The notes beneath the pieces are model-generated. The model was not told where the DNA came from. It searched no databases and worked only from the letters and a program-made list of their open reading frames with translations. Both the position numbers and the translations under genes were made by a program. Positions 15,295 to 29,646 of a stretch of DNA of 64,000 nt are shown here, piece after piece (position 1 is the first letter of the stretch; every line of letters begins with the position of its first letter). Origin of the DNA: an uncultured Eubacteriales bacterium (GTDB taxonomy: Bacteria > Bacillota > Clostridia > Oscillospirales > Acutalibacteraceae); assembly GCA_949292775.1 (NCBI GenBank), contig CASFBL010000006.1:1-64000 (forward strand), in the 5' to 3' direction.

Positions 15295-15364
15295 AGTATT
15301 CTCCTTATTTTGAAATTTTTGCACATGCTGAAACTTGCATGGAAAAGGAAATATGCTATTTATA

Positions 15365-15392
15365 AGTATACCAAAAAACCACAAAAAGTCCA
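15365..15392 (-). promoter_or_regulatory. Promoter of the GPH symporter-GH2 operon
   Basis: Minus strand TGGACT (15387-15392), 16-bp spacer, TATACT (15365-15370), 70 bp upstream of the symporter ATG. Confidence 0.55.
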
Positions 15393-15469
15393 TGGAGAAA
15401 TTGAAATTTTTAAGCAAATTCCCGAAAGTTGTTCTGTTTGCTCCTGCTGTGCTGACGCTTCTTGTTAAA

Positions 15470-15498
15470 TTGCAGAAAAGAAAAAAATATGCTATACT
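15470..15498 (+). promoter_or_regulatory. Probable promoter of the HAD phosphatase gene
   Basis: TATACT (15493-15498) with a weak -35 (TTGCAG) 17 bp upstream; the start codon follows about 30 bp later with AAAGGAAA in front. The remaining sequence between the two divergent promoters shows no further feature. Confidence 0.45.
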
Positions 15499-15531
15499 TT
15501 TTGCAGAAATTTCGCAAAGGAAAATTGCTTT

Positions 15532-16374
15532 ATGAAAACGCTTTACATTTCCGATTTAGACGGCACGCTGTTAGACAACAGCGGGCATATTTCTGAAAAA
15601 AGTCTTTCCATTCTCAACCGGTTGTCTGCGCAAGGGCTTATATTTTCGATTGCGACCGCACGCAGCATTATGACAGCACGGGACCTTTTAGGCTCGCTTC
15701 GGCTCAACGCGCCGGTGGTCTTAATGAACGGCGTATTTTTGTTTGATTTGAAAGAAAACAAGGCGGTGCGCTGCCACGAAATTGACAGCGAAGCGCTAAA
15801 AAAAGTGCTCTCTGTCTTTTCGGCACATGACAAAGCGCCGCTTTTGTTCTTATTCGGTGACGACGGACTGCTTTCAATTTTCTTCACAGAGCAAAAGCTG
15901 CAAATTCACAAAGATTTTTACGCACAGCGTGAAAAAAGCTTTGCGGGGCGTTTTCGGCGCGTGGAGCATCTTTTTGTGCCGGAGCACCAGCACGCAGTTT
16001 ATGTAAATCTTGTGGATTTATATGAAGAACTCGCGCCCATAGCCGACGCACTGAAAGCAATTCCCGTCGTCGCTTTTTCGTTTTACAGTGACACCTACTC
16101 CCCTTACTGGTTTTTAGAAGTCTATGCCGAAAGCGCCAGCAAGGCGAACGGCGCGCTGGAAGTAAAAGCGCTGACCGGCGCGGACCGCATTGCCGCGTTC
16201 GGCGACAATTTAAACGACCTGACGCTGTTCGCCTGCGCGGACGAAACCTATGCCGTTTCAAACGCCGTGGACGAGGTCAAAGCGCGCGCCACAGCCGTTA
16301 TCAAAAGCAACGAAGAGGACGGCGTGGCGGAATTTCTGCTGCAAAATTTCTCAAAAAAATCCATTGACAACTAA
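15532..16374 (+). CDS. HAD-superfamily phosphatase, Cof/YidA type
   Basis: A 280-residue cytoplasmic haloacid dehalogenase-like hydrolase of subfamily IIB. Motif I is LYISDLDGTLLDN (residues 2-14, two catalytic aspartates), motif II is in the SIATARS segment and motif IV is AFGDNLNDLTLF. A large C2 cap lies between motifs II and III. Members dephosphorylate sugar phosphates, nucleotides or FMN, and the specificity cannot be assigned. The stop codon overlaps the promoter of the following tRNA gene, so the two genes are packed but separately transcribed. Confidence 0.9.
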   Translation: MKTLYISDLDGTLLDNSGHISEKSLSILNRLSAQGLIFSIATARSIMTARDLLGSLRLNAPVVLMNGVFLFDLKENKAVRCHEIDSEALKKVLSVFSAHDKAPLLFLFGDDGLLSIFFTEQKLQIHKDFYAQREKSFAGRFRRVEHLFVPEHQHAVYVNLVDLYEELAPIADALKAIPVVAFSFYSDTYSPYWFLEVYAESASKANGALEVKALTGADRIAAFGDNLNDLTLFACADETYAVSNAVDEVKARATAVIKSNEEDGVAEFLLQNFSKKSIDN

Positions 16375-16392
16375 GGGCAATCGTGGTATTAT
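16364..16392 (+). promoter_or_regulatory. tRNA-Leu promoter
   Basis: Consensus TTGACA (16364-16369), 17-bp spacer, TATTAT (16387-16392). The -35 lies at the HAD stop codon. The precursor leader contains an AACGCC-GAAA-GGCGTT hairpin (about 16405-16420) before the mature tRNA. Confidence 0.8.
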
Positions 16393-16433
16393 ATTCAAGC
16401 GTTGAACGCCGAAAGGCGTTTAAAACTGAATAT

Positions 16434-16520
16434 GCGGATATGGCGGAATCGGCAGACGCGCTAGATTCAGGTTCTAGTCGGGGCAACTCGGTGGAGGTTC
16501 AAGTCCTCTTATCCGCACCA
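16434..16520 (+). tRNA. tRNA-Leu, anticodon CAG
   Basis: An 87-nt cloverleaf including an encoded CCA. The acceptor stem pairs GCGGATA with TATCCGC; the anticodon loop TTCAGGT (16466-16472) gives CAG at 16468-16470, reading CUG. There is a long variable arm as expected of class II tRNA-Leu, and the T arm is GGAGG-TTCAAGT-CCTCT. The 3' end is the attachment point of the 13-kb insertion: its last bases are repeated at 29589-29612. Confidence 0.95.
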
Positions 16521-16522
16521 AA
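16499..16522 (+). repeat. Left 24-bp attachment repeat (end of tRNA-Leu)
   Basis: The last 22 bases of the tRNA gene (T loop to CCA) plus two A residues are repeated exactly at 29589-29612. The intact tRNA is on this side, so the site is regenerated at the gene's 3' end, as is usual for islands that use tRNA targets. Confidence 0.8.
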
Positions 16523-16535
16523 TCAGAAAGAGTCG

Positions 16536-16569
16536 CTTGGGGCACCCTCCGTAAGGAAGGTGCCCCAAG
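16536..16569 (+). terminator. Hairpin downstream of tRNA-Leu
   Basis: An 11-bp perfect stem (CTTGGGGCACC with GGTGCCCCAAG), 12-nt loop, followed by a short T-rich stretch. It probably ends the tRNA transcript now that the presumed native terminator lies 13 kb away. Confidence 0.55.
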
Positions 16570-16623
16570 GACTTTTGTATCTTAAGTTAAATAATAGTTT
16601 TGTTGAAACGGTGTAGCCTTTGG

Positions 16624-18342
<1,719 letters not shown>

Positions 18343-18401
18343 CTATCATACCATATCGGCTGCAATTATTCAACGCTTTAATGTGGTAAATCAAATGTTT
18401 T

Positions 18402-18662
18402 CTACTCTTTTTTCAAAACAATGCGTTCCACCTTTTCAGTGATATTCTCACCTGCGTCCTCTTTGAAAAAGGCCCTTACTGCATAGAGTGTGCCGTCGAT
18501 TTCCTTTACAAAGTTCAGTGGTTCAAGGTACATACCTTGCTTAAACCACGCTATACGCTCTTCTTTGGTAAGTTCAGTAAGGTGGTCGGTTATCCCGTCG
18601 AGGAGAGAATAAATCTCGCCCGTTTTTTCTATTGCATTGCCTTGATTATCTATATACATCAT
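18402..18662 (-). CDS. Small transposon-encoded protein, TnpW-like
   Basis: An 86-residue acidic protein. The C-terminal half (IDGTLYAVRAFFKEDAGENITEKVERIVL) has the pattern of the small TnpW proteins found beside serine recombinases in clostridial elements: a short beta hairpin followed by a helix with E-K-V-R-I spacing. Function unknown. It starts inside the relaxase stop codon (ATGA overlap), so it is translated from the mobilization operon and sits between relaxase and recombinase. Confidence 0.6.
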   Translation of the reverse strand: MMYIDNQGNAIEKTGEIYSLLDGITDHLTELTKEERIAWFKQGMYLEPLNFVKEIDGTLYAVRAFFKEDAGENITEKVERIVLKKE

Positions 18663-20017
18663 CGTTCCCGTTGCTCCTTCTGCTGTGATTTTCTGTTTTG
18701 TTCGGCTTCTTTTGCCCTGTATTCGTTGGCATAAAGTAAATCGGTTTTTTCCTGAATTTTAATTGACCGCTCCTCAATGCCCTTGTTCAGTTTCAGCTGC
18801 TTTCTGAGTTCCGTTATCCTCTCCGTAACGCCTGACTTTTCCTGCCGCAAGGTTTCTTTTTCGGCTGGTGATGCCCTGCGAATTTTGTTTTGCAGTTTGG
18901 TGCGGTAAGCGATCAGCTTATCCATTTCGCCCTGTAATCTATCCCTGTCCGCATACAGATTATCAAAGGTTGCAATGCCGTATTTGCTCATATACCGCAC
19001 CTGCTCGGATAGTTCCTCCAGCTTCTTTAAATCTTCCTTGAGATAGGGGCTTGTGGGGCGGTAGGTGGTTTTCTTGGGTAAAACACCTAACAGATAGCAG
19101 TAGTGCAGATACAGCTTGTAAATATGGCTCGTCTTTTGAAAAGGCTTAAACCAGTCCCGCAAGCTTTGCGGCATTTGAGGTGGATAGGTGATTGTCGCCC
19201 TGCGGTTTCCGAAGGAAGCGTATGCACCCATTGTCCTTTGGATATTTTCAGGCGTCCATCTTTCATCCAGCGTGTCCAGCCTTGTGAAATACTCATACTG
19301 CGGCAATCGTATCTTCCAATGCTTGCCGGTGAAGTCGGTAATATATCCTTTCCGCCGCAGATATTCCTCCATATAGTAGGGGCTGCGGCTGAAATTGATG
19401 GCTTCTTTTACATCTTCACGGTAAACATTGTATCTTGTCGGCTTGCCGCTTTTCTCATCCAGCCATACCTGCCTTGACGGCGCTTTATGCGGTTTTTCGA
19501 TAACCGACAAGCCGTGCTCCCGGCAGATCCGGTCGGATACCTCACGGAGTTTTCTCTGCTCTGTTTTGGAATAGTTGTATTTCTTGCCGTCTAAAAAGGA
19601 AACTGAATTGAAGCAAAAATGGTTGTGCAGATGGTCTTTATCCAGGTGGGTAGTGACGATGATCTGATACTTTTCTCCCCACATTTCCTTTGCCAACTGC
19701 AAGCCGATTTCATGCGCCTGTTCGGGTGTAACTTCGCCGGGCTTGAAGCTTTGATAACCGTGCCAGGCGATATATCCGTTTTCCTTGCCGTACTGCCTTT
19801 TCGTTAGAATCATCTGCTGCAGGGCAATCTCTTTCAGACAGTTGATAGCCGAAACATATTCGCCCTGTTCGGTCGCTTCAGGGCGGCTGACATAGGAAAA
19901 CACATCCCACAGCGGCTGCAAGCCCGGAGTCTCTGCTCTTGTCTTTTCAGGATTTTCCACATAGGCAATCAGGTCTTTCAGCCTGCCCTCGATATGCCAT
20001 AAACTGGTGGTTGCCAT
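18659..20017 (-). CDS. Relaxase / mobilization nuclease (MOB_P-like)
   Basis: A 452-residue DNA relaxase that would nick oriT and lead the strand into a recipient. The metal-binding histidine motif HLDKDHLHNHFCFN (residues 124-137) matches HxDxxHxHNH of the MobA/VirD2 group. The C-terminal third is charged and helical (QEKSGVTERITELRKQLKLNK...), a likely coiled coil. Its start overlaps the MobC-like stop by one base (TAATG) and its stop overlaps the next gene, so mobC-like, relaxase and tnpW-like form one operon transcribed away from the oriT-like hairpins. Confidence 0.9.
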   Translation of the reverse strand: MATTSLWHIEGRLKDLIAYVENPEKTRAETPGLQPLWDVFSYVSRPEATEQGEYVSAINCLKEIALQQMILTKRQYGKENGYIAWHGYQSFKPGEVTPEQAHEIGLQLAKEMWGEKYQIIVTTHLDKDHLHNHFCFNSVSFLDGKKYNYSKTEQRKLREVSDRICREHGLSVIEKPHKAPSRQVWLDEKSGKPTRYNVYREDVKEAINFSRSPYYMEEYLRRKGYITDFTGKHWKIRLPQYEYFTRLDTLDERWTPENIQRTMGAYASFGNRRATITYPPQMPQSLRDWFKPFQKTSHIYKLYLHYCYLLGVLPKKTTYRPTSPYLKEDLKKLEELSEQVRYMSKYGIATFDNLYADRDRLQGEMDKLIAYRTKLQNKIRRASPAEKETLRQEKSGVTERITELRKQLKLNKGIEERSIKIQEKTDLLYANEYRAKEAEQNRKSQQKEQRER

Positions 20018-20325
20018 TATCCCGCCTCCTGTAGATTGAGGATCAGACCTTCAATTTCTTTGCAGACCCCCAAAGCAGACGGCTCGTATTTGCTACATTT
20101 TTGAAAGCCGTTATGAACATCATAGAGGGCGTTTAACAGTTCCCAAAACTCTTTTTTAGGCTGTGATTTGGGCGCTTTGCCTTTGCATAACTGACGGATA
20201 AATGCCGATTGAGACAGCCCGCATGCTGATGCACAGTGCTTCAGTTTTTCGTGTTCTTCTTCGGATAAGCGTACCTTGATACGTACTTTTCGATTGTTTT
20301 CTTTATTCAAAAATATCATCTCCAT
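20017..20325 (-). CDS. MobC-like relaxosome accessory protein
   Basis: A 102-residue protein with an N-terminal ribbon-helix-helix signature (RKVRIKVRLSEEEHEKLKHCASACGLSQSAFIRQLCKG) typical of MobC proteins that bind oriT and help the relaxase. The start is uncertain: ATG at 20325 has little ribosome-binding sequence, whereas a TTG at 20310 (giving MNKENNRKVRI...) has GGAGATGAT upstream. It is the first gene of the mobilization operon and directly faces the hairpin cluster proposed as oriT. Confidence 0.8.
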   Translation of the reverse strand: MEMIFLNKENNRKVRIKVRLSEEEHEKLKHCASACGLSQSAFIRQLCKGKAPKSQPKKEFWELLNALYDVHNGFQKCSKYEPSALGVCKEIEGLILNLQEAG

Positions 20326-20355
20326 TCTTGTGTTTTATCTTAGTAAGGGGGTATT

Positions 20356-20424
20356 CAGGGGGTGTCCCCTGAGTCAGTCCGCATTCCTTTAGGGTGCGGA
20401 TTGGGATTGTGGGTGCCACAATCC
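20356..20424. other. Candidate origin of transfer (oriT): three hairpins
   Basis: Three consecutive inverted repeats lie 30-100 bp upstream of the MobC-like gene: CAGGGG/CCCCTG (20356-20371), TCCGCA/TGCGGA (20378-20400) and a perfect 9-bp GGATTGTGG/CCACAATCC with a 3-nt loop (20404-20424). Clustered repeats beside mobC and the relaxase are the usual organisation of oriT. The nick site cannot be placed from sequence. Confidence 0.5.
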
Positions 20425-20990
20425 GATGCTCGTTATCCCTATGGACATCATCTTTCTCTTTGCCGTTTTACCCGAATGTCGTTCCTGCCCCTGCTTTTTC
20501 AGCGGCGTGGTTTTGCTCTGCTTTCCGAGAAAGCTGTCATCGCAAAATCATATCCCATTCAGACGGTCATTCAGTTGTAATCGACAAAACAAAAAAAGCC
20601 GATACACAGAGACATCAAAAATCGACGGGAGTTTTGCTCTCGCTTCAAAATGATGTTCTATGTAACGGCTTTGAATTTCAAAGACGGGACTGTTTGTTCA
20701 TCTGTTCACTCGCTGACAGTACCAAAAAGCATAGAGTACAGACGGCGGTATTTTCTCTTAGCATACACGCAGGCATTGGTCGGTTTACACCGCATTCCTA
20801 ATCCAAACATCTTGTATTCAGTTTTAACTCTCATTCAAGAGGGATTTCATTATATCAAAACCATCGCCGAAAATCAAGTTTTTGGTAAGATTCTGTATAG
20901 TTTTTGCAAAAGCAGGTCATACTATTTTGTTACACTATCTGTCAAACGCCCTATTATCGGCAAATATATGTTAAAATAATTTTGAAGCAC
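20425..20990. other. Gene-poor stretch inside the element
   Basis: About 570 bp between the oriT-like hairpins and the defence-operon promoter. Short open frames on the plus strand (for example 20650-20979, 109 codons) lack a good ribosome site and resemble no family I recognise. I see no convincing gene; it may be a decayed remnant or part of the oriT region. Confidence 0.4.
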
Positions 20991-20991
20991 A

Positions 20992-21020
20992 TTGTAATTA
21001 TTCCGATATTGTGATATACT
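20992..21020 (+). promoter_or_regulatory. Promoter of the fic-mod-res-hamAB-like operon
   Basis: TTGTAA (20992-20997), 17-bp spacer, TATACT (21015-21020), about 35 bp before the AGGAGG of the fic gene. It is the only good promoter seen for the five-gene run. Confidence 0.7.
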
Positions 21021-21060
21021 AAATTTATATAAGTAGCCCTCAAATCAGGAGGTATGAAAG

Positions 21061-21984
21061 ATGGAATATTTAACAGTTACACAGGCGGCGGAAAAATGGG
21101 GTATCTCTACCCGTCGTGTTCGTTTGCTTTGTGCCAATGGTGAAATTGACGGAGTTATCCGCAAAGGAAAATTATATATGATACCTGCAGAAACAGAAAA
21201 ACCGTTGGATAAACGAAAATTGCCTAACAAAAAAAAACGCGGCAGATTTGCAGATATACTAACTGAAATTGATATTAAAAAAGTTAAACTTGACGATATG
21301 CGTCCGCTTACTGCAGGCGAAACACAGCGTTTGCGTGATGAATTTATGGTTGACTTCACCTATAATTCAAACGCTATTGAAGGCAACACGCTTACTTTGA
21401 AAGAGACCGCTATGGTGCTTGAAGGAATGACGATAGACCGTAAACCCTTGAAAGATCATCTTGAAGCTGTCGGGCACCGTGACGCATTCCTTTATATTGA
21501 AGATATTGCACAAAATAAGGCAAGATTGAGAGATACGGAAATCAAGGCGATTCATTCATTAGTACTAATGAATAGACCTGAAGATAAAGGAGTTTACCGC
21601 CGTATTCCTGTCACAATTGCAGGTGCATATACCGAACCGGTACAACCATTTCTCATTGAGCCGAAATTGACGGAGTTACTTGCCGAAAATGAAGAGCGTA
21701 AAAAGACAATGCATCCGATTGAACGCATTGCCCGTTTTCATCTCGAATTTGAAGGAATACATCCTTTTATAGACGGTAACGGCAGAACAGGTCGCTTGAT
21801 TTTAAATCTTGAGCTTATCCGCAACGGTTATCCCGCAATCAACGTGAAGTTTACTGACCGTAAACGCTATTATGATGCTTTTGATGCATTTTATCGTGAC
21901 GGCAAAGCAGACGATATGGTGTTACTTGTTGCAGAGTATGTAAACGAACGCCTTGACCGGTATTTAGAAATTGTGAAAGAGTAA
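21061..21984 (+). CDS. Fic-domain protein with N-terminal helix-turn-helix
   Basis: A 307-residue protein. Residues 1-45 resemble a MerR/excisionase winged helix (EYLTVTQAAEKWGISTRRVRLLCANGEI). The Fic core has an intact catalytic motif, HPFIDGNGRTGR (234-245), expected to transfer AMP or another phospho-group onto a hydroxyl side chain. The segment YNSNAIEGN (101-109) fits the inhibitory (S/T)xxxE(G/N) helix, so this is a class II, self-inhibited Fic protein. It opens the defence operon, with a strong AGGAGG, and is followed by mod after 19 bp. It could regulate the operon through its HTH, or act as a toxin-like effector; neither is shown. Confidence 0.88.
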   Translation: MEYLTVTQAAEKWGISTRRVRLLCANGEIDGVIRKGKLYMIPAETEKPLDKRKLPNKKKRGRFADILTEIDIKKVKLDDMRPLTAGETQRLRDEFMVDFTYNSNAIEGNTLTLKETAMVLEGMTIDRKPLKDHLEAVGHRDAFLYIEDIAQNKARLRDTEIKAIHSLVLMNRPEDKGVYRRIPVTIAGAYTEPVQPFLIEPKLTELLAENEERKKTMHPIERIARFHLEFEGIHPFIDGNGRTGRLILNLELIRNGYPAINVKFTDRKRYYDAFDAFYRDGKADDMVLLVAEYVNERLDRYLEIVKE

Positions 21985-22003
21985 TAGTATTAGGAGAAAC
22001 AAA

Positions 22004-23635
22004 ATGAGTACAAATGTATCAAAGCAAAAGCGTGAGGACTTGCTGAATAAAATAAAAGAAATCCGAACCTTTATTTCTACCGCTCCGCAGGACGAGAACA
22101 CGGGCAATCTGCTCTCCTATCTGTCTGACCTTGAAAAAGACGTGAACGGGAAGAAATATGGGCTTGTGTTCGAAGAGCACCGGGAAGAAATTGACGAGGT
22201 GCTGGACACCCACACGCCGGTGCTGACAGAGGACGCAGATCTGTTCATCGATAATGGTGGGCAAATGAATTTTCTTATTGAGGGAGACAACCTTGCTTCG
22301 TTGCAGTTGCTTGAAAAGACACACAAGGGTAAAATTGACCTTATCTATATTGATCCGCCGTACAATACGGGAGCAAAAGACTTTGTATATGATGATGCGT
22401 TTATTGATACCACTGATGGTTTTAACCATAGTAAATGGCTGTCATTTATGAAACAACGCCTCACGCTGTCGAAAAGGTTACTTGCACCCTATGGAACGAT
22501 TTTTATGTCCATAGATGACAATGAATTTTCCCAGTTAAAACTATTGTGTGATGAGGTCTTTGGCGCAAATAATTGTGTAGGTACAATCCTATGGAAAAAG
22601 AAAACGAACGGTAATAATATGGGGTGGCTTCCTCCTGTACACGATTACATATTGTGCTACTCAAAAGAAATTGAAAAAATATATGACTTAGGTTTTGAAG
22701 TTTCAGAAGAAGATATTCTTAAAAATTATAGCAACCCCGACAATGATCCGCGTGGACCGTGGACAACTACAGACTTATCAGCAAATCATAAAGGACCGTA
22801 TTTTCCTGTTACCAATCCAAAAACTGGAGATGTTTATTATCCTCCTGACGGAAGATATTGGGTGTTTAACGAGCAGGAAATACAGCGAAGGATAGCCGAT
22901 GGAAGAATCATTTTTGGTAAAAGCGGAACCGCAAGACCGGTGCAACGAGTTTTTGTGAAAGATCGAAAATTTTCAAAACGCAAAGCGGAATCTTGGTGGG
23001 ATAATCACGGAATGAATGCCGATGCAACACAAGAATTAAAAGATATTTTTGGTATTGCAAAAGTGTTTACACATCCCAAACCGACTCAACTCATCAAGGA
23101 TATTGTGACGATGTCGTGTAGTAAAACTGCAACTATTCTCGACTTTTTTGCAGGCTCCGGCACTACTGGACACGCTGTTATGAAACTGAACGCCGAGGAC
23201 GGTGGAAACCGTCGCTTTATCCTCTGCACCAACAACGAAAACAATATCTGCCGTGATGTTACATATGGGCGTATCAAGCGTGTGATTGACAAAGAGGGGT
23301 ACGCCGCCTCTCTGAAATATTACAAGGTCGACTACATCCCCATTTCGGATCGTATGTACTATGAATACGCCGATGAACTGCTCACCCATATCCGTGAGTT
23401 GGTGGAATTGGAAAACGGTGTGAATTTTACGGGCAATGCGGAGATTGCTATCGTACTGACCGAAGAAGAACTTGCTGATTTTATGGCGAATATCGAAGCC
23501 TATGGCAAGTGCCGCAAACTGTATATGGGGCACGATCTGCTGCCTGATGAGGAGCAGGAACAATCTCTTGCTGACCACGGTATCGAAGTCAATATCATTC
23601 CCGACTACTATTATCGGGATTTACAGGAGGTGTAA
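22004..23635 (+). CDS. mod: Type III restriction-modification methyltransferase (Mod)
   Basis: A 543-residue N6-adenine methyltransferase of the beta class: catalytic motif IV DPPYNTG (117-123) precedes the SAM-binding motif I ILDFFAGSGTTGH (378-390). The region between them (about 180-370) is the variable target-recognition part. Mod recognises a short asymmetric site and methylates one strand; with Res it forms the type III nuclease complex. It follows the fic gene by 19 bp (TAGGAGAAAC ribosome site) and precedes res by 3 bp. No simple-sequence tract suggesting phase variation was seen in the gene. Confidence 0.93.
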   Translation: MSTNVSKQKREDLLNKIKEIRTFISTAPQDENTGNLLSYLSDLEKDVNGKKYGLVFEEHREEIDEVLDTHTPVLTEDADLFIDNGGQMNFLIEGDNLASLQLLEKTHKGKIDLIYIDPPYNTGAKDFVYDDAFIDTTDGFNHSKWLSFMKQRLTLSKRLLAPYGTIFMSIDDNEFSQLKLLCDEVFGANNCVGTILWKKKTNGNNMGWLPPVHDYILCYSKEIEKIYDLGFEVSEEDILKNYSNPDNDPRGPWTTTDLSANHKGPYFPVTNPKTGDVYYPPDGRYWVFNEQEIQRRIADGRIIFGKSGTARPVQRVFVKDRKFSKRKAESWWDNHGMNADATQELKDIFGIAKVFTHPKPTQLIKDIVTMSCSKTATILDFFAGSGTTGHAVMKLNAEDGGNRRFILCTNNENNICRDVTYGRIKRVIDKEGYAASLKYYKVDYIPISDRMYYEYADELLTHIRELVELENGVNFTGNAEIAIVLTEEELADFMANIEAYGKCRKLYMGHDLLPDEEQEQSLADHGIEVNIIPDYYYRDLQEV

Positions 23636-23638
23636 GCG

Positions 23639-25825
23639 GTGCAACTGAAAAACTTTCAATTATCGGCTGTAAAATCGCTTTTTGAGGCGATGGATAAGCC
23701 TGTCCGTGACATTATTCTAAAAAGCCCTACGGGCAGCGGAAAGACGATTATTCTTACATATTTTATGCACCAGTATGTGCAATCTTACCGCAATACCGTG
23801 TTTGTATGGCTCACCCCCGGCAAGGGAAATTTGGAGGAGCAGAGCAAGAAAAAGATGGATCAGTATATCCACGCCGCTCAGACAAAGTTGCTCTCCGATG
23901 TAATGACGGGCGGCTTTGAAGAAAACGATAACTGTTTCATCAACTGGGAAAAGCTGACGAAAAAGGGCAACAACGCCCTGAAAGACAGCGAACGCACCAA
24001 CTTCTTGGAGCATATCGAACACGCTCTGAACGCCGGTTTGCATTTTATTGTTATTGTGGACGAAAGCCATCAGAACAACACGGTGAAGGCGGATGAAATC
24101 ATCCAGTATTTCCATACGGACAAAATCATCCGTTGCTCCGCTACGCCGAAAGGTATTAAAAATGCGGAAATCATAGAAATTCCTGAAGCGGATGTTATTG
24201 CCGAGGGACTTATCAAGAAAATGCTAATAATTAATGAGGATTTTCCTCAACAGGTGGAAATGGAGAATGCAACCAGCTATCTGTTGGAACAGGCTTATGC
24301 CAAGCAGCGTGAAATCCGTGCTGAATTTCTTTCCGCCGGAAAGGACATCAATCCTTTGATCGTGGTGCAGATTCCAAACAAATCGGAGAAATTGCAGGAC
24401 GATGTGGAACGCTGGTTTGAAACGCAAGGCGTAACCTATGAAAACGGTCAGCTTGCGGTGTGGCTCTCTGATATGCACGAAAACTTGGAGGGCATTGAAG
24501 AAATCAATGCGCCCTCTGTTGCTGTTATTATCAAGCAAGCTGTTGCCACGGGCTGGGACTGTCCGAGAGCTGCCATTTTGGTAAAGCTTCGTGACAATAT
24601 GGATGAAATCTTTGAAATTCAGACCATTGGGCGTATTCGCCGTATGCCGGAGGCACATCACTACGGTAAAGATTTGTTGGATAGCTGTTATCTCTACACT
24701 TTCGATGAAAAATTCACCGCCGGTGTCAAGCTGAGCCTCGGCAAAGGGGCTTTGGAAGCAGCTACCCTGTTCCTTAAAAATGAGTATAAAGGCATCACCC
24801 TGACCTCCGAACAGAGAACGATGGTGACAGATCACCGCAATCCGAAAAAGGCTCTGCTCTCTGTAGCAAAGTATTTTGAAGAAAAATTCAAAACTGGCTC
24901 GAATAAGGTAGAGAACAAGACACGCTTGCAGGCGGCGGGCTTTGAATTTAGTGCCGATATTCTGCGTCATACCCTTTCGGGTGAAACTGCAACCTTGGAT
25001 TTTGCTTCGGCAGATATGAATACGGTCATCATTACCGAAAAGCTGAATACCCACGATCACGGTCATATGTACCATCAGAAGGTGGGTAAAATTGGTTTGG
25101 AAATCGGAATGGAATACAGCTATATGAATACGATCATTCGTAAGCTGTTTGATCGCAATTTTACATACAGTCGTAAAATCCTCGCAATGGAACCGAGAGA
25201 GGTCTATGCATTTGTTATCAACAACGCCGATCTGCTACGGCACACGGTGCGTGAAGCGATGGCAGCTGATCTTCAACAACTTACCTTTGATATTAGTCAA
25301 GTATCAAAGGTACCGTTCCGAATCCCACAGTCCTGCCTGTTTACCTATGATGGTACAGCAAAAACACAGTTAGAAATGAAGAAAAATGTATATCGGGGCT
25401 ACCTTTCCTCTGCGGAAGTTCGCTCCTCTTCAGAACGCAAATTTGAGAAATTCTGCGAAAAGTGCGATGCCGTGGAATGGGTATATAAAAATGGTGATAA
25501 AGGCAATGAGTATTTGTCCATCGTATATGCGGATAATTCGGACAAGCAGAAGAATTTTTATCCCGACTATATAATCAGCGTAAACGGTGAAGTTTGGATC
25601 GTGGAGACCAAGGGCGGCTTTGACCGCAGTGGCAATAGCCAAGATATTGACATTTTCACACCGAAAAAATTCGCTGTGCTGAAAGATTATTTGGAACGCT
25701 ACGGCTTAAAGGGTGGCATTGTCCGCTATGACGAAAAAAGTGAAGAACTGTGCATTTGTATGGACAGCTATTCCGAGGATATTAACAGCGATAGCTGGGT
25801 TGTGCTGAGTGATATTTTGAAGTGA
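23639..25825 (+). CDS. res: Type III restriction enzyme subunit (Res)
   Basis: A 728-residue helicase-nuclease. Superfamily 2 motifs are Walker A SPTGSGKT (29-36), the DEAD-like box VDESH (140-144), SATPKG and QTIGRIRR. The C-terminal PD-(D/E)xK endonuclease is present as PDYIISVNGEVWIVETK (Asp643, Glu656, Lys658). It needs Mod and ATP to cut between two unmethylated sites. Translation starts at GTG 23639 with AGGAGG eight bases upstream, inside the end of mod, so the pair is coupled. It is shorter than the ~900-1000 residues of EcoP1I-type Res, but all key motifs are there. Confidence 0.92.
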   Translation: MQLKNFQLSAVKSLFEAMDKPVRDIILKSPTGSGKTIILTYFMHQYVQSYRNTVFVWLTPGKGNLEEQSKKKMDQYIHAAQTKLLSDVMTGGFEENDNCFINWEKLTKKGNNALKDSERTNFLEHIEHALNAGLHFIVIVDESHQNNTVKADEIIQYFHTDKIIRCSATPKGIKNAEIIEIPEADVIAEGLIKKMLIINEDFPQQVEMENATSYLLEQAYAKQREIRAEFLSAGKDINPLIVVQIPNKSEKLQDDVERWFETQGVTYENGQLAVWLSDMHENLEGIEEINAPSVAVIIKQAVATGWDCPRAAILVKLRDNMDEIFEIQTIGRIRRMPEAHHYGKDLLDSCYLYTFDEKFTAGVKLSLGKGALEAATLFLKNEYKGITLTSEQRTMVTDHRNPKKALLSVAKYFEEKFKTGSNKVENKTRLQAAGFEFSADILRHTLSGETATLDFASADMNTVIITEKLNTHDHGHMYHQKVGKIGLEIGMEYSYMNTIIRKLFDRNFTYSRKILAMEPREVYAFVINNADLLRHTVREAMAADLQQLTFDISQVSKVPFRIPQSCLFTYDGTAKTQLEMKKNVYRGYLSSAEVRSSSERKFEKFCEKCDAVEWVYKNGDKGNEYLSIVYADNSDKQKNFYPDYIISVNGEVWIVETKGGFDRSGNSQDIDIFTPKKFAVLKDYLERYGLKGGIVRYDEKSEELCICMDSYSEDINSDSWVVLSDILK

Positions 25826-25835
25826 GGTGAATGTC

Positions 25836-26525
25836 TTGAAGATAACTGACCACAGGATACTAACTGAGTTTTCTCCTGCAAAAGTTCAATTTTTCAGAAT
25901 AGATCCTGAAGATATTTCAGCAACATTGTCAGATATTTTGCGTACTCTCATGGACTTGTCTTGGCTCAGTAAATTCGATCAAGACTTTGAACAGAAAGCA
26001 TTTGCCTCCCGTGCAAAGAAAACCATTGATGATATTAAAGAAAAGTTTGATAAATGTGTTGATGACAATATCAGCAAAGATGCTGGTGAGTATGTAGTAT
26101 CTGAATTAGCCAGAGAAACTATGGTATCAAAATTGGACTATTTAGATATTCCTCTTGATGAACTTGTTGGTAAAAAACGTTCCGGGAATCCTGGGTTTGA
26201 TTTTCATTCGCAAAACAAAATTACGGATACGGTTATTTTCGGTGAAGCGAAATATGTTGCCACTACAACAGCGTATTCATCGGCATTGCCACAAATCGTC
26301 GATTTTATCAGAGATGGAAAAGATGTTGAGGATCTTCCTGAATTAAAACCGTTCTGTACAACATCGGCTTTGCAAAGGGCGGCCGATGGAAGAAAGGGAT
26401 TTTCTGCTGCGTTTTCAGCAAAAACTACCAACACAGATAGAATAATCGCTAATATCACGAAGCGCCCGGACTTTCAATCATTACTTCAATATGAAGAACT
26501 CATTTTGGTGGCGGTGGACTTATGA
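25836..26525 (+). CDS. HamA-like protein (candidate DUF1837 nuclease of a Hachiman system)
   Basis: A 229-residue protein without a signal or membrane segment. Its middle part contains DAGEYVVSELARE and then GFDFHS......FGEAKYV, which gives an Asp, five residues, then Glu-x-Lys (Asp131, Glu137, Lys139): the layout of a PD-(D/E)xK nuclease core as in HamA/DUF1837. TTG at 25836 has GAGGTGA six bases upstream; a GTG at 25827 is the alternative. The gene follows the res stop almost directly and its end overlaps the helicase start. Identification as HamA rests on this motif, length and partner, not on an alignment. Confidence 0.62.
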   Translation: MKITDHRILTEFSPAKVQFFRIDPEDISATLSDILRTLMDLSWLSKFDQDFEQKAFASRAKKTIDDIKEKFDKCVDDNISKDAGEYVVSELARETMVSKLDYLDIPLDELVGKKRSGNPGFDFHSQNKITDTVIFGEAKYVATTTAYSSALPQIVDFIRDGKDVEDLPELKPFCTTSALQRAADGRKGFSAAFSAKTTNTDRIIANITKRPDFQSLLQYEELILVAVDL

Positions 26526-28843
26526 ATACTGTTTTAGAAAAGGGCAATATCATTGCCAAAATCCGCAAAGGGGAAGATTTGGAGCAGATTATCGACTATG
26601 TCAAATCTGAAATTTATCAAAATGGTCCCAATAGCTCGGTGGTTTTAGAAATAGTATCATATTTCAAACTGTTTCAACCAGAGTTTTTCAAGAAAGACGA
26701 GCAAGAAATCATTGCTACGATGGGGCTGTTTTTCAAACAGCCCAAAATCGAAAGCCTTACAGGATCAGTCTTTGAGATGTATCATCAGCAACTCAAGGAC
26801 GAATTCGGCAATGACTATACGCCAATGCAAGCAGATATACTTAAGAAGATACGAGATTTGCAGTATTTCAGCTTTTCAGCTCCAACAAGTACGGGAAAAT
26901 CATTTGTGTTTCGACATCTTATTTCTGAATGTTCTAATGATGTGGTTGTCATTGTTCCATCAAGGGCACTCATTAACGAGTACTACGACCGACTGAACAA
27001 CCTTGTAGACACAAAAACTGTAAATATCCTGACTTTTGTTGATAGGATTAACACAAAACACATTCACAGAAATATTTTCATACTGACACCTGAACGCGCA
27101 AGAGAGTTGTTCAAGAATAAGGATTGGCTAAAAATTGACCTTATTCTATTTGATGAAGCACAGCTTAGTGATGAGCACTCCGTTCGAGGTCTGTATTTTG
27201 ATAGTATTGTGAGGCGATCACTAAAATATTTTCCTGATGCAAAATTTGTTTTTGCACATCCTTTCATCAAAAATCCTGAAGCGCAATTGCAGAAGAATGG
27301 CATCGAAACCATTGATACAACGGCAACATACAGCAATTATGAATTAAAAAATGTAGGACAGATTTTTTATACCCATGACACCACGAACCAAAAATTTTAT
27401 CATTTCGGGAGTGATCCTGCAACGCTGGGAAAACGCAAGTTGGAAGCAAACTTTGATCCCATTGAATCGGCACTAAAAAAGGGTGGTAGTGTACTGATCT
27501 ATGTACCAAAGTCACATATTTACAGCAAGCAGATATACATTCAATTCCAGAGGTATATTTCTATGTGCCAACCAATTGATGATCCTATTGCAATAAAAAT
27601 GATAGATGAGCTAAAGGAGTATATTGGTGCTTCAACAACTGATAAGTTGTTTTATAACTCTGATATGCTGGAAAAACTGAGATGTGGGATTGTTGTTCAT
27701 CACGGTTCAATGCCATTGACAGCCCGTTTGATATTAGAGCATTTTACGCAGCAAGGCTTCTGTAAAATCTGTTTTGCTACTTCTACACTGGAGCAGGGAA
27801 TCAATATGCCATTCGATGTGGTTTATCTTGACCGTTTCGAGGAAAGTAAAACACTTTCTGTTAAAAATCTGATTGGTAGAGCCGGTCGCTCTACCAACAA
27901 ACCAGTATTTGATTTTGGCAGCGTCATTTTGCGACCAAATGCAATGAGTAGATTCCGAAAAGTGTATCGCAAGAAAAATACTCTTTCGTCAAAATCTCGA
28001 TTAGATACCACAGACGATAAAATTGATGAAAAATATGAAGAGTACAAAGAAGCAATCAAAACAGGGGAATTCTCGGATGAGTATAATCTTACAAATAAGG
28101 ATCTTGAGAAATTAAAGTCAGATAGTGTTACTACGGTAGTCCCCACATTATTGGATATGATGTTTACTGATGCAGGCTTTGTGTTGCCTAATGCAGTAGC
28201 AAAAGAGGTGTATGAGGACTTCCAGTGCTTGTACAAGCAGTACTTAGGCCGAGAACTAACTGCAGCAGAAAAATTTGTTTTTGATTCCGCCATCAAAATA
28301 ATGATATGGAAAGTGCACGGCAAAACATTTAGTAAGATTTGTCAAGAGAGATATGCTTATGTTTCCAATGTTGCTCAACGGCGATTATTGTCACGAGCAG
28401 GTCAACAAGATCGTGCTGATAGTCTGACAGTTAGATACATAGCAGGCTATAGTGATATTCCAGATAAAGAATTGCGTACTTTCCCCTTATTCCCTGCTGA
28501 AACAAAGGGTAAAGATGTCGATTACGACCGTATTGTTTATGATACATATGATTTTCTCGATAAACTTATAGGGTTTAAGCTGAGCGATTTGTTCTATGCG
28601 GTTTTCCATCAGTATTATCTTGCGTATCAAGACGATCGTGCTGAGCGGTTGGCAAAGTACATCAAATATGGAACAGAAGACTCAACTGAGATATGGATGT
28701 TACGATATGGGTTTTCTTTTGAAGAAATTGAATGGTTGAAGCCTTGTGTTGAAAGTATTGATCAAACGGAAATTAAATTTAATGAAAAAATTGAAAACCT
28801 CAGCGATGCTCAGAAAAGTAGTATTGCGAAATTTATTTTTTAA
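26522..28843 (+). CDS. Superfamily 2 helicase, HamB-like
   Basis: A 773-residue DNA/RNA helicase. Motifs: Walker A APTSTGKS (120-127), Ia IVPSRAL, motif II LFDEAQ (209-214), motif V STLEQGINMP (421-430) and motif VI IGRAGRS (451-457), as in Ski2/HamB-like enzymes. The C-terminal ~250 residues are of unknown fold. The ATG overlaps the stop of the HamA-like gene (4 bp), typical of Hachiman, where HamB's ATPase licenses the HamA nuclease. It is shorter than some HamB proteins. The alternative is an uncharacterised helicase-nuclease defence pair. Base composition is AT-richer than in mod and res, suggesting the pair was acquired separately. Confidence 0.7.
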   Translation: MNTVLEKGNIIAKIRKGEDLEQIIDYVKSEIYQNGPNSSVVLEIVSYFKLFQPEFFKKDEQEIIATMGLFFKQPKIESLTGSVFEMYHQQLKDEFGNDYTPMQADILKKIRDLQYFSFSAPTSTGKSFVFRHLISECSNDVVVIVPSRALINEYYDRLNNLVDTKTVNILTFVDRINTKHIHRNIFILTPERARELFKNKDWLKIDLILFDEAQLSDEHSVRGLYFDSIVRRSLKYFPDAKFVFAHPFIKNPEAQLQKNGIETIDTTATYSNYELKNVGQIFYTHDTTNQKFYHFGSDPATLGKRKLEANFDPIESALKKGGSVLIYVPKSHIYSKQIYIQFQRYISMCQPIDDPIAIKMIDELKEYIGASTTDKLFYNSDMLEKLRCGIVVHHGSMPLTARLILEHFTQQGFCKICFATSTLEQGINMPFDVVYLDRFEESKTLSVKNLIGRAGRSTNKPVFDFGSVILRPNAMSRFRKVYRKKNTLSSKSRLDTTDDKIDEKYEEYKEAIKTGEFSDEYNLTNKDLEKLKSDSVTTVVPTLLDMMFTDAGFVLPNAVAKEVYEDFQCLYKQYLGRELTAAEKFVFDSAIKIMIWKVHGKTFSKICQERYAYVSNVAQRRLLSRAGQQDRADSLTVRYIAGYSDIPDKELRTFPLFPAETKGKDVDYDRIVYDTYDFLDKLIGFKLSDLFYAVFHQYYLAYQDDRAERLAKYIKYGTEDSTEIWMLRYGFSFEEIEWLKPCVESIDQTEIKFNEKIENLSDAQKSSIAKFIF

Positions 28844-28886
28844 AATTGAATGAATTTTGAGAACTTCTCACAATGTGTATTTGAAC

Positions 28887-28938
28887 TTAACGCAACGACG
28901 GCAAGAATTTCTTCCTGCCGCCGTTCTAAGTTAGTTGT
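28887..28938. terminator. Imperfect hairpin between the helicase and tnpV genes
   Basis: An imperfect stem (AACGACGGCAAGAA region with TTCCTGCCGCCGTT region) lies between the convergent helicase and TnpV genes. It may serve as a shared terminator, though T tracts are poor. Confidence 0.4.
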
Positions 28939-29311
28939 AAATTATATCGTGATTCACGATTTCTGCTGCCCTACTTTGGATGTTATTCATTCGTGCAACC
29001 CATTTCATTTGATTTTCCAATTTGAGTTGTTCAGTAACGCCCTCACGCTCTGCCATCTGATTTACCAGCCGAGAAAACATTTCCTGTGCCTGCTCGTCAA
29101 CATCGGCAAGGTGGCTGCTTAGTTTACCGCTTGTAAACAAATTCATATACAAAACCTTATGATTTTGCTTTAAGTATTTTGCGTGCCGCTGTCCCCATAC
29201 GCCAATATGCCTTTCTTCCTCTTCGGCGGGTAAAATAAGATCAGGCAAATAATAGTCGCCTTGAAGTGTATAACTGATACCTGTTTTTTCATCTGTGTAA
29301 TGCTGTTTCAT
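28931..29311 (-). CDS. tnpV: Transposon-encoded protein TnpV
   Basis: A 126-residue protein of the TnpV family, recognised by the pattern YTLQGDYYLPDLILPAEEE...IGVWGQRHAKYLKQNHKVLYMNLFTSGKLSSHLADVDEQAQEMFSRLV. TnpV proteins accompany serine recombinases in Tn4451-like clostridial elements; their function is not known. Start ATG has GGAGGATTACAAA in front. Its presence near the right end shows that the element extends at least this far past the defence operon. Confidence 0.85.
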   Translation of the reverse strand: MKQHYTDEKTGISYTLQGDYYLPDLILPAEEEERHIGVWGQRHAKYLKQNHKVLYMNLFTSGKLSSHLADVDEQAQEMFSRLVNQMAEREGVTEQLKLENQMKWVARMNNIQSRAAEIVNHDIIYN

Positions 29312-29378
29312 TTTGTAATCCTCCAGTATGATTGATTTTACCTACAATCCGATCAATCTGGCCGGCTACAAAGCCCAA

Positions 29379-29410
29379 GGGAGAAGCTACTTCCTTATGT
29401 AGCCTCTCCC
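29379..29410. repeat. Inverted repeat near the right end of the element
   Basis: GGGAGA-A-GCTAC pairs with GTAGC-C-TCTCCC around an 8-nt loop, 70 bp upstream of tnpV. A T-rich tract follows nine bases later on the plus strand. It may be a terminator or part of a recombinase binding region. Confidence 0.5.
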
Positions 29411-29444
29411 TTTAGCGGCTCTTTTTGATTTTGCAAATAATTTT

Positions 29445-29460
29445 AAGAGGACTTGAACCT
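29445..29460 (-). repeat. Inverted copy of the tRNA-Leu T arm
   Basis: Sixteen bases that are the exact reverse complement of 16495-16510 in tRNA-Leu. Together with the direct copy at 29587-29600 they flank the 29461-29586 cassette as an inverted repeat. Confidence 0.75.
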
Positions 29461-29588
29461 GGGAAGGTTTCGGCGTTTAGAAAATGTGCCGGCGGCACAT
29501 TTTCAGCCGGAAGCGCGAGGGCGGTACCGCACGCACAGCGTGGGGTGTCCCAAGCGGGCAGTCTGCAAGGCGAAGCCGACGCAGACGG
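29461..29588. other. Structured GC-rich cassette between tRNA-derived repeats
   Basis: About 128 bp, far GC-richer than the DNA on its left. It contains a perfect palindrome of 10-bp arms (AAAATGTGCC, 3-nt loop, GGCACATTTT) at about 29479-29502 and a GCGGTACCGC palindrome. All three plus-strand frames are open but Arg/Cys-rich and unlike real proteins, so I read it as non-coding. Confidence 0.55.
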
Positions 29589-29612
29589 TCAAGTCCTCTT
29601 ATCCGCACCAAA
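29589..29612 (+). repeat. Right 24-bp attachment repeat (tRNA-Leu 3' fragment)
   Basis: Exact copy of 16499-16522. Only this fragment of the tRNA is present; the bases just before it differ, so the T stem is not complete and no second tRNA is made. Confidence 0.8.
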
Positions 29613-29646
29613 AAACAGCTCACACTTTTGTGTGGGCTGTTTTTTA
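29612..29646 (+). terminator. Terminator beyond the right repeat, likely the native tRNA-Leu terminator
   Basis: An 11-bp stem (AACAGCTCACA with TGTGGGCTGTT, one G-T pair), 6-nt loop and T tract. It starts right at the repeat, at the distance expected of a tRNA terminator in the uninterrupted locus. Confidence 0.8.

What the first reader, a model, noticed from the sequence alone, without database searches (positions are those of the whole stretch)
20992..28843. One-promoter operon: Fic + type III RM + Hachiman-like pair on a mobilizable element
Five genes on one strand with gaps of 19, 3 and about 10 bp and one 4-bp overlap follow a single good promoter. They encode an HTH-Fic protein, Mod, Res, a PD-(D/E)xK candidate and a SF2 helicase. 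Two complete defence systems in one transcription unit, headed by a Fic protein, is an unusual arrangement and may act as a layered system.
Basis: partly seen in the sequence, partly recalled or inferred. Interest (0 to 1): 0.78.

Follow-up and report, generated by a model that had tools for sequence, protein, structure and literature searches.

The report
Restriction system carrying a Hachiman pair
A mobile DNA element in a bacterium carries one tightly packed gene cluster that joins a DNA-cutting restriction system to a second, Hachiman-like anti-virus pair; the four-gene core recurs in distant bacteria, while the gene at its head and the part that reads DNA sequence are exchanged.

Summary
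In detail: five same-strand genes (Fic, type III Mod, Res, a D-GExK nuclease, a Ski2-like helicase) follow a promoter-like site that a relative conserves. They are cargo of a ~12.9-kb Tn4451-like mobilizable element beside a tRNA-Leu; one same-genus genome has the empty site. The last two genes are a divergent Hachiman pair: the helicase matches HamB (1e-57); the nuclease escapes HamA models but keeps D-GExK in 72 of 72 aligned. Mod-Res-HamA-HamB recurs in 8 of 79 HamB loci, from Clostridia, Dielma, Paenibacillus and Gardnerella; with the window they form one HamB clade, with one unlinked member inside. Fic is not core: it heads 2 of 9 copies. Mod's target-recognition region is swapped in L032, L033 and L042 while Res and HamAB stay 88-96% identical. 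Linkage is asymmetric: 16 of 16 Mod-Res relatives found through Res lack HamAB, two of them close, and 9 of the 16 carry other genes (TIR, Thoeris, Schlafen, AAA, unassigned) in that slot. Best reading: a restriction chassis with an interchangeable second-tier module, perhaps joined through DNA ends. Coupling is untested; passive stacking is nearly as likely.

The parts
16434..16520 (+). tRNA-Leu (cag), next to the element's left end
   Evidence: ARAGORN
16533..29415 (.). Mobilizable element, about 12.9 kb (ends uncertain by about 9 bp)
   Evidence: Empty site in same-genus genome G024 (locus L157): window flanks 15236-16541 and 29407 onward lie directly together there; homology of L031 and L042 to the window also stops at 29412
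16624..18312 (-). Large serine recombinase, TnpX-like (Resolvase, Recombinase, Zn ribbon, DUF4368)
   Evidence: Pfam; the name TnpX-like is recalled
18402..18662 (-). TnpW
   Evidence: Pfam PF14202, 9e-12
18659..20017 (-). MobA/VirD2-type relaxase
   Evidence: Pfam PF03432, 1e-41
20017..20325 (-). NikA-like mobilization protein
   Evidence: Pfam PF21983, 3.2e-13
20992..21020 (+). Promoter candidate TTGTAA-17-TATACT, extended -10
   Evidence: Scan; hexamers and spacing kept in L042
21061..21984 (+). HTH-Fic protein, 307 aa; Fic motif HPFIDGNGRTGR and inhibitory-type motif SNAIEGN; accessory head gene
   Evidence: Pfam Fic 8.7e-20, HTH_17 5.2e-6; PADLOC PDC-S04 2.6e-35; full-length at this place in 2 of 9 copies
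22004..23635 (+). Type III Mod methyltransferase, 543 aa; DPPYN and FAGSG motifs
   Evidence: PADLOC MTase_III 6.9e-124, Pfam N6_N4_Mtase 1.4e-38
22450..23132 (+). Exchanged target-recognition region of Mod (approximate)
   Evidence: DNA homology breaks at 22410-22485 in 5 of 6 relatives compared, resumes at 23124-23135 in 4 of these and at 23312 in L032; protein identity to the window is 3-57% per 30-residue bin over residues 151-360 in 7 of 8 relatives, 97-100% in L031
23639..25825 (+). Type III Res, 728 aa: SF2 helicase plus C-terminal PD-(D/E)xK (FYPDYII...ETKGG)
   Evidence: Pfam ResIII 2.9e-18, PADLOC REase_III 1.4e-16; D...E(T/A)K in 19 of 19 Res C-termini aligned
25827..26525 (+). HamA-like nuclease, 232 aa (TTG 25836 is the alternative start); E88, D125, G139-E140-x-K142
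   Evidence: D125, G139, E140, K142 invariant in 72 of 72; hhalign to canonical HamA 78.5% probability, E 1.7e-5; model pLDDT 92.4
26522..28843 (+). HamB-like Ski2-type SF2 helicase, 773 aa
   Evidence: PADLOC HamB 1e-57; model pLDDT 88.2 matches Hel308, Pol theta helicase and HamB 8VX9 (3.1e-16, rank 6)
28890..28935 (+). Hairpin after HamB, possible terminator (weak)
   Evidence: RNA fold of 28844-28960, z -2.36; not listed by the terminator scan
28931..29311 (-). TnpV
   Evidence: Pfam PF14198, 4.2e-49

Best explanation
It is a composite defence operon: a short-form type III restriction-modification chassis (Mod-Res) whose downstream slot holds a divergent Hachiman pair, and whose upstream slot holds an exchangeable accessory gene, here an HTH-Fic protein. 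The whole is cargo of a Tn4451-like mobilizable element. Likely working: (1) Mod methylates the host's own sites, and its exchanged recognition region decides which sites; (2) Res, with Mod, cuts unmodified incoming DNA; (3) DNA ends and single-stranded tails made by Res, by phage replication or by failed restriction are loaded by HamB; (4) HamB then releases or activates HamA, which degrades DNA and stops the infection at the cost of the cell. So Mod-Res is the selective first tier and HamAB the unselective second tier, meeting through the state of the DNA rather than necessarily through protein contact. Steps 1 and 2 are inferred from family membership, 3 and 4 from the published Hachiman mechanism; the hand-off from Res to HamB is inference. 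Fic is probably a separate, autoinhibited AMP-transferase addition, possibly regulatory through its HTH domain (inference from recalled family knowledge).
For: Gene anatomy and families. Same four-gene order in 8 of 79 HamB loci plus the window, in Lachnospiraceae, Anaerovoracaceae, Erysipelotrichaceae, Paenibacillaceae, Bifidobacteriaceae and unclassified Clostridia (names as printed). On the HamB tree the 9 linked copies and L035 form one clade (SH-aLRT 100, quick tree): 8 of the 9 relatives in it have Mod-Res. Order is kept although HamB has fallen to 55-66% identity between the deep members. Target-recognition exchange in Mod with Res, HamA and HamB at 88-96% in L032, L033 and L042. Res and HamA data do not reject each other's tree (p-AU 0.206 and 0.076). 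HamA active-site residues invariant in 72 of 72. Purifying selection on the genes. Published: HamB takes in a free ssDNA end and HamA is activated; those authors note that damage by other defence systems adds to it (PMC12278908, Discussion read whole; passages). [quoted passage not shown]
Against: No result here shows interaction. Mod-Res relatives found by searching with Res all lacked HamAB: 0 of 13 read from whole genomes and 0 of 3 read from plasmids, including L171 (71%) and L172 (61%), which sit inside the linked group; a single clade of linked Res is rejected (p-AU 5.6e-61). L035 has HamAB of the clade without Mod-Res. Most HamAB pairs of the wider family lack this Mod-Res (71 of 79), so HamAB does not need it. 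HamB's tree is rejected by Res data (0.017) and HamA data (0.0002), and HamB data narrowly reject the Res tree (0.0455; HamA tree 0.057), so parts may have recombined. Five of the nine copies are close (HamB 87-97%) and may count as one recent spread.
Confidence: 0.45

Rival explanations
1. Passive stacking. Mod-Res and HamAB are independent systems that share one promoter because a mobile element that carries more defences spreads better. There is no hand-off; conservation of order reflects joint transfer of one block.
For: Both parts occur apart (71 of 79 HamB loci; 16 of 16 Mod-Res relatives found through Res). The slot after Res takes unrelated genes: TIR/SEFIR, ThsA-ThsB, AAA_15, SLFN_AlbA_2. 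The head slot takes Fic, AbiE, ORF6N. Gene trees conflict in part.
Against: The HamAB clade concerned is nearly always behind Mod-Res (8 of 9 relatives), over deep divergence and several families, while head gene and recognition region turn over.
Confidence: 0.35
2. Guard. HamAB is held quiet in cells with a working restriction enzyme and fires when a phage blocks restriction, as PrrC does for EcoprrI.
For: RM loci with embedded guards are known: PrrC is silenced by a linked type I enzyme (PMC2610378, start of abstract in the listing; PMC12707154, passages). The tight operon would fit.
Against: Most HamAB pairs here have no such partner; published Hachiman is triggered by DNA damage.
Confidence: 0.1
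3. Licensed degrader. Mod marks self for HamAB as well as for Res, so HamAB works as a second restriction enzyme of the same system.
For: Mod, Res, HamA and HamB are kept together while the recognition part of Mod changes.
Against: Most HamAB pairs here lack this Mod (other methylases near them were not searched for); nothing here tests contact with Mod.
Confidence: 0.05

Closest known systems
Hachiman (HamA-HamB)
   Same: Adjacent nuclease then Ski2-like helicase; D-GExK motif of HamA; helicase recognised by HamB models; fold related to 8VX9 chain B.
   Different: The HamA is short (232 aa; the ten canonical ones fetched here have 265-328) and below the curated HamA models; 2 of 72 aligned members touch PF08878 at E 0.1 (best 1.9e-4). 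It sits in a type III RM operon, which my literature searches did not find described.
Type III restriction-modification (Mod-Res)
   Same: Mod with DPPYN-type methylase and exchanged recognition region; Res with SF2 helicase and C-terminal PD-(D/E)xK.
   Different: Res of 728 aa; the best stretches of the three REase_III hits lie in its helicase part; accessory genes before Mod, between Mod and Res, and after Res in relatives.
RM loci with embedded accessory or guard genes (PrrC in EcoprrI)
   Same: A second, cell-stopping defence inside an RM operon.
   Different: PrrC cuts tRNA and belongs to a type I system; here the partner is a predicted DNA nuclease-helicase pair behind type III. Whether it is a guard is untested.
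Tn4451-type mobilizable elements
   Same: Serine recombinase, TnpV, TnpW, relaxase.
   Different: Carries defence genes instead of the resistance gene known for Tn4451 (recalled).
SoFic and class II Fic proteins
   Same: Canonical Fic motif, N-terminal inhibitory-type motif (definitions recalled); PADLOC SoFic hit 1.1e-25.
   Different: Far below the NCBIfam SoFic equivalog cut-off (43.6 of 550 bits); has an added HTH_17.

Membership tests
Hachiman | Nuclease gene directly before a HamB helicase gene | tested here: met
   Window, and a match to its nuclease just before HamB in 78 of 79 relatives; L069 holds only 441 bp before HamB
Hachiman | HamB-type Ski2-like SF2 helicase | tested here: met
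   PADLOC HamB 1e-57; 8VX9 chain B at rank 6 of the fold matches, after Hel308 and Pol theta
Hachiman | HamA family (DUF1837, PF08878) | tested here: inconclusive
   Window protein: no HamA hit in PADLOC, Pfam, NCBIfam; 2 of 72 members hit PF08878, best 1.9e-4, and single members hit PADLOC HamA models, best 5.3e-5; profile-profile to ten canonical HamAs 78.5%, E 1.7e-5, against 0.29 for a control with Res C-termini
Hachiman | D-GExK active site of HamA | tested here: met
   D125, G139, E140, K142 invariant in 72 of 72; 8 of the 79 loci left out as short, cut, broken or in another code. Motif as in PMC12799240 passages
Hachiman | HamA fold as in 8VX9 | tested here: inconclusive
   Foldseek: no match at E <= 0.001; the 50 listed of 286 are weak, some are PD-(D/E)xK enzymes, no HamA among them; second aligner not available
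Hachiman | Anti-phage activity through DNA degradation | not testable with these tools
   needs the bench
Type III RM | Mod methyltransferase of the type III family | tested here: met
   MTase_III 6.9e-124
Type III RM | Res with helicase and endonuclease parts | tested here: met
   ResIII 2.9e-18; C-terminal D...E(T/A)K in 19 of 19 aligned; the endonuclease part rests on motif, not on a model hit
Type III RM | Site-specific methylation and ATP-dependent cutting | not testable with these tools
   needs methylome and enzyme assay
SoFic | NCBIfam SoFic equivalog | tested here: not met
   43.6 bits against a cut-off of 550
Class II Fic | Fic motif plus N-terminal inhibitory (S/T)xxxE(G/N) | tested here: met
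   Read in the sequence: HPFIDGNGRTGR and SNAIEGN; motif definitions recalled
Tn4451-type element | Serine recombinase, TnpV, TnpW, relaxase between defined ends | tested here: met
   the gene list of Tn4451 is recalled

The most novel reading that the evidence does not exclude
Mod-Res-HamA-HamB is one integrated system: Res cutting at unmodified sites makes the DNA ends that switch on HamAB, so a sequence-specific restriction event is amplified into whole-genome destruction and abortive infection. More generally, this short type III restriction family would be a trigger chassis with an interchangeable effector slot (HamAB, Thoeris ThsA-ThsB, TIR/SEFIR, Schlafen, AAA).
Probability: 0.28. Interest if true: 0.8.

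Novelty: new variant of a known kind. Interest (0 to 1): 0.5.

Why it matters
If the two tiers are joined, a methylation-based self/non-self test would be setting off a general cell-suicide nuclease, and that is directly testable by changing only whether a phage's sites are modified. Even if they are merely stacked, the locus suggests that one family of type III restriction operons collects second-line defences in a fixed downstream slot, which is a way to look for new ones: the genes behind Res in L139, L142, L144 and L172 have no clear functional assignment.

Tried and rejected
Fic as a core member: rejected, 2 of 9 copies. The four-gene block as a fixed, obligate unit: rejected on L035, L171 and L172. 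HamA as an unrelated nuclease: not favoured, because active-site pattern, position and profile comparison agree, but the fold search did not settle it. Searches of viral contigs with HamB, HamA and Res gave no relative; phage records gave three distant HamB matches (22-29% identity); plasmids gave no HamB at E <= 1e-40 and seven records with Res relatives, of which three were read. Sequence search of solved structures with HamA gave only chance-level matches, mostly cytochrome c (best 0.047 and 0.038).

Literature: no paper describing a type III RM-Hachiman operon came up (25 listed of 16,048 that held any two terms; 1; 9 listed of 10; 12 listed of 19; 2; 4); a Fic / type III restriction / defense island search found 0 papers. 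These cover open-licence PMC papers only, and most were seen only as listings. PMC13335696 and PMC11514479 mention Hachiman and type III RM separately in the passages seen; PMC12839542 passages name HamB only as a Ski2 example.
Full report
1. What is there. The window lies on contig C6 of an unnamed 2.16-Mb genome in 44 contigs. Three genomes labelled 'same class' have contigs of the same lengths as named Clostridia-type records (G333, G345 and G158 against L039, L040 and L093), so I infer a Clostridia host. The five genes stand as described. Gaps are 19, 3 and 1 or 10 bp, then a 4-bp overlap. The fourth gene may start at GTG 25827 or TTG 25836; in the eight linked relatives the aligned first codon is GTG, TTG or ATG, so the point is open. 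The promoter candidate at 20992-21020 is not remarkable by count (25 sites found, 23.4 expected), but the Dielma copy L042 keeps both hexamers and the spacing where much of the DNA further upstream has drifted.

2. The element. On the minus strand to the left lie a large serine recombinase with DUF4368, TnpW, a relaxase and a NikA-like protein; to the right is TnpV. Same-genus genome G024 has the empty site: window stretches 15236-16541 and 29407 onward lie directly together in L157. The element is therefore about 16533 to 29415, just after a tRNA-Leu. Only this one genome was examined for the empty site, and the first 200 bp of the right flank are duplicated there. Homology of L031 and L042 to the window also ends at 29412. 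In L042 no match to the recombinase, relaxase or NikA-like protein was found; TnpV matches lie downstream in L031, L033 and L042, 3 of the 8 linked copies. Cargo G+C is 37-46%, flanks 44-56% per kilobase.

3. The proteins. Fic: HTH_17 match plus Fic domain, Fic motif and SNAIEGN read in the sequence. Mod: MTase_III 6.9e-124. Res: helicase plus C-terminal FYPDYII...ETKGG; the D...E(T/A)K pattern is in 19 of 19 aligned Res C-termini, two of which (L138, L142) have AD for PD; L031, L140 and L141 were not in that alignment. HamB: 1e-57 in PADLOC; the model (pLDDT 88.2) is closest in fold to DNA helicases Hel308 and Pol theta, with HamB 8VX9 at rank 6. HamA: no model matches the window protein at the limits used. 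In an alignment of the window and 71 of 79 relatives, D125, G139, E140 and K142 never vary; eight loci were left out as short, cut, broken or in another code. This is the D-GExK pattern of HamA (PMC12799240, passages). Profile comparison with ten canonical HamAs fetched by PF08878 gives 78.5% and E 1.7e-5 over the active-site stretch; controls with Res C-termini give E 0.29 (HamA-like) and 0.098 (canonical HamA). The model (pLDDT 92.4) found no solved structure at E <= 0.001. I call it HamA-like, not proven HamA.

4. Is the arrangement conserved? A scan of genome contigs with the HamB alignment, by two short peptide patterns, gave 79 loci (80 of 89 relatives kept). Of these, 8 have Mod-Res-HamA-HamB in this order on one strand: L031 (its Res split by an in-frame stop), L032, L033, L034 (an FRG-domain gene between Mod and Res), L036 (Gardnerella), L037, L038 (Paenibacillus) and L042 (Dielma). 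L103 has a weak Mod match about 4 kb upstream without Res and is not counted. On the HamB tree (78 rows; L106 and L107 left out) the 9 linked copies and L035 form a clade (SH-aLRT 100). L035 lacks Mod-Res in the 3 kb held upstream, and its HamA ORF is short. The linkage label needs 2 changes on that tree, against a mean of 8.7 in shuffles; near-copies help this number.

5. From the other side the picture is looser. Searching with Res gave 11 other genomes of 391 in the class (ten read, one fragment not), 3 of 329 in the phylum at a stricter limit (three read), and 7 plasmid records (three read). None of these 16 loci has a HamA or HamB match. Two of them, L171 (Res 71%) and L172 (61%), fall inside the linked group on the Res tree, and a single linked clade is rejected. 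An earlier tree without them showed one clade, so that result depended on sampling. The eight linked relatives were found through HamB, so the share of close Mod-Res loci that carry HamAB cannot be read from these numbers. What can be read: this HamAB clade is nearly always behind Mod-Res (8 of 9 relatives), whereas Mod-Res often stands without it.

6. Slots. In 9 of 9 linked copies HamA starts 1-17 bp after Res. In 9 of 16 other Mod-Res loci a same-strand gene of another kind starts within 25 bp of Res (ORFs of at least 100 aa, 90 in L171-L173, annotated genes in the plasmids): AAA_15 (L138), SAP_new25 (L139), TIR/SEFIR (L140, L141), an unassigned pair (L142), ThsA_Macro with ThsB_TIR (L143), a gene with a sub-cut-off DUF4145 match (L144), SLFN_AlbA_2 (L145) and an unassigned gene (L172) (families; L141 by its likeness to L140; the 118-aa gene of L142 and the genes of L172 were not scanned). 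Seven have none. The head slot holds Fic (window, L042), AbiEi-AbiEii with DUF6680 (L031; the same proteins by eye in L033), ORF6N (L032) or a DUF4143 end at the contig's edge (L034); L036 has only a 52-aa Fic-like stretch, and L037 and L038 have no head gene close by. I did not run a background rate for same-strand neighbours at this spacing.

7. Mosaic history. Between the window and L032, L033 and L042, Res, HamA and HamB are 88-96% identical, but Mod is 62-66%, the loss lying in its middle; L031 (94-97% in all four) keeps the same recognition region. DNA homology breaks at 22410-22485 in five of six relatives compared and resumes at 23124-23135 in four, at 23312 in L032; L037 and L038 were not in that comparison. 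This is exchange of the target-recognition region, known in type III systems (recalled). In trees of the nine, Res and HamA data do not reject each other's tree (0.206, 0.076); HamB's tree is rejected by HamA data (0.0002) and Res data (0.017); HamB data reject the Res tree narrowly (0.0455) and not the HamA tree (0.057). The likely cause is the place of L036, but that fork is weak (49). dN/dS is 0.025-0.09 in the comparisons that could be computed; one could not, and dS exceeds 1 for the start of Mod.

8. Fic. In the class, 27 genomes besides the window's, of 291 searched, have a relative at E <= 1e-60. Nine loci were read more widely: none has a match to Mod, Res or HamAB, though in L202 and L204 the contig ends just after Fic; L198 has an HsdR-like gene two genes on (by eye). 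So Fic looks like a free-standing gene that joined the head slot.

9. How it probably works. Published Hachiman: a free ssDNA end enters HamB, ATP hydrolysis follows, and HamA destroys DNA (PMC12278908, Discussion read whole). A restriction enzyme beside it would supply ends on foreign DNA, so joint expression makes functional sense without protein contact. This is inference. Passive stacking explains nearly as much, and I give it 0.35 against 0.45.

10. Novelty and score. Each part is known in kind; the HamA is a divergent relative; the four-gene combination, its spread over two phyla and the exchangeable slots are, as far as reach, not described. Accessory genes beside restriction systems are an established idea (PMC12707154, passages). 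I rate it a new variant of a known kind, interest 0.5.

Noticed in passing
L143:5701-9298: A short type III Mod-Res followed within 25 bp by ThsA_Macro and ThsB_TIR genes: a type III restriction operon with a Thoeris-type pair in the slot that HamAB occupies here.
   Followed up: partly
L142:11352-13109, L139:11103-11720, L144:6245-7177, L172:11854-13322: Genes directly behind type III Res with no clear functional family (SAP_new25 in L139, a sub-cut-off DUF4145 in L144, none or not scanned in the others); candidates for unknown second-tier defence.
   Followed up: no
L031:7118-9304: Res of this close copy is split by an in-frame stop (585 and 117 aa ORFs) while Mod, HamA and HamB stay open.
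   Followed up: no
window 29430-29613: A short dispersed repeat of about 180 bp, starting just right of the element, recurs in this genus; copies stand in tandem at the empty site in L157.
   Followed up: partly
L042:4093-12890: In Dielma the same cargo and TnpV lie between sequences like the element's two ends, without a match to recombinase or mobilization genes: a minimal, perhaps trans-mobilized form.
   Followed up: partly
PDB 9wh1 chain B: The closest solved sequence to this HamB family (1.7e-46) is labelled 'DNA polymerase theta (Helicase domain only)', 853 aa; the label may hide a bacterial HamB-like protein.
   Followed up: no
L036:9315-12304: In Gardnerella Res is 83% but HamB only 57% identical to the window's: HamB may have been replaced in place by another of the same clade, or evolves faster there.
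   Followed up: partly
L052:12328-13299 and L088:8144-9196: Distant Fic-like genes (28-29%) also lie beside two HamAB pairs that lack Mod-Res: just after HamB in L052, before HamA on the other strand in L088.
   Followed up: no
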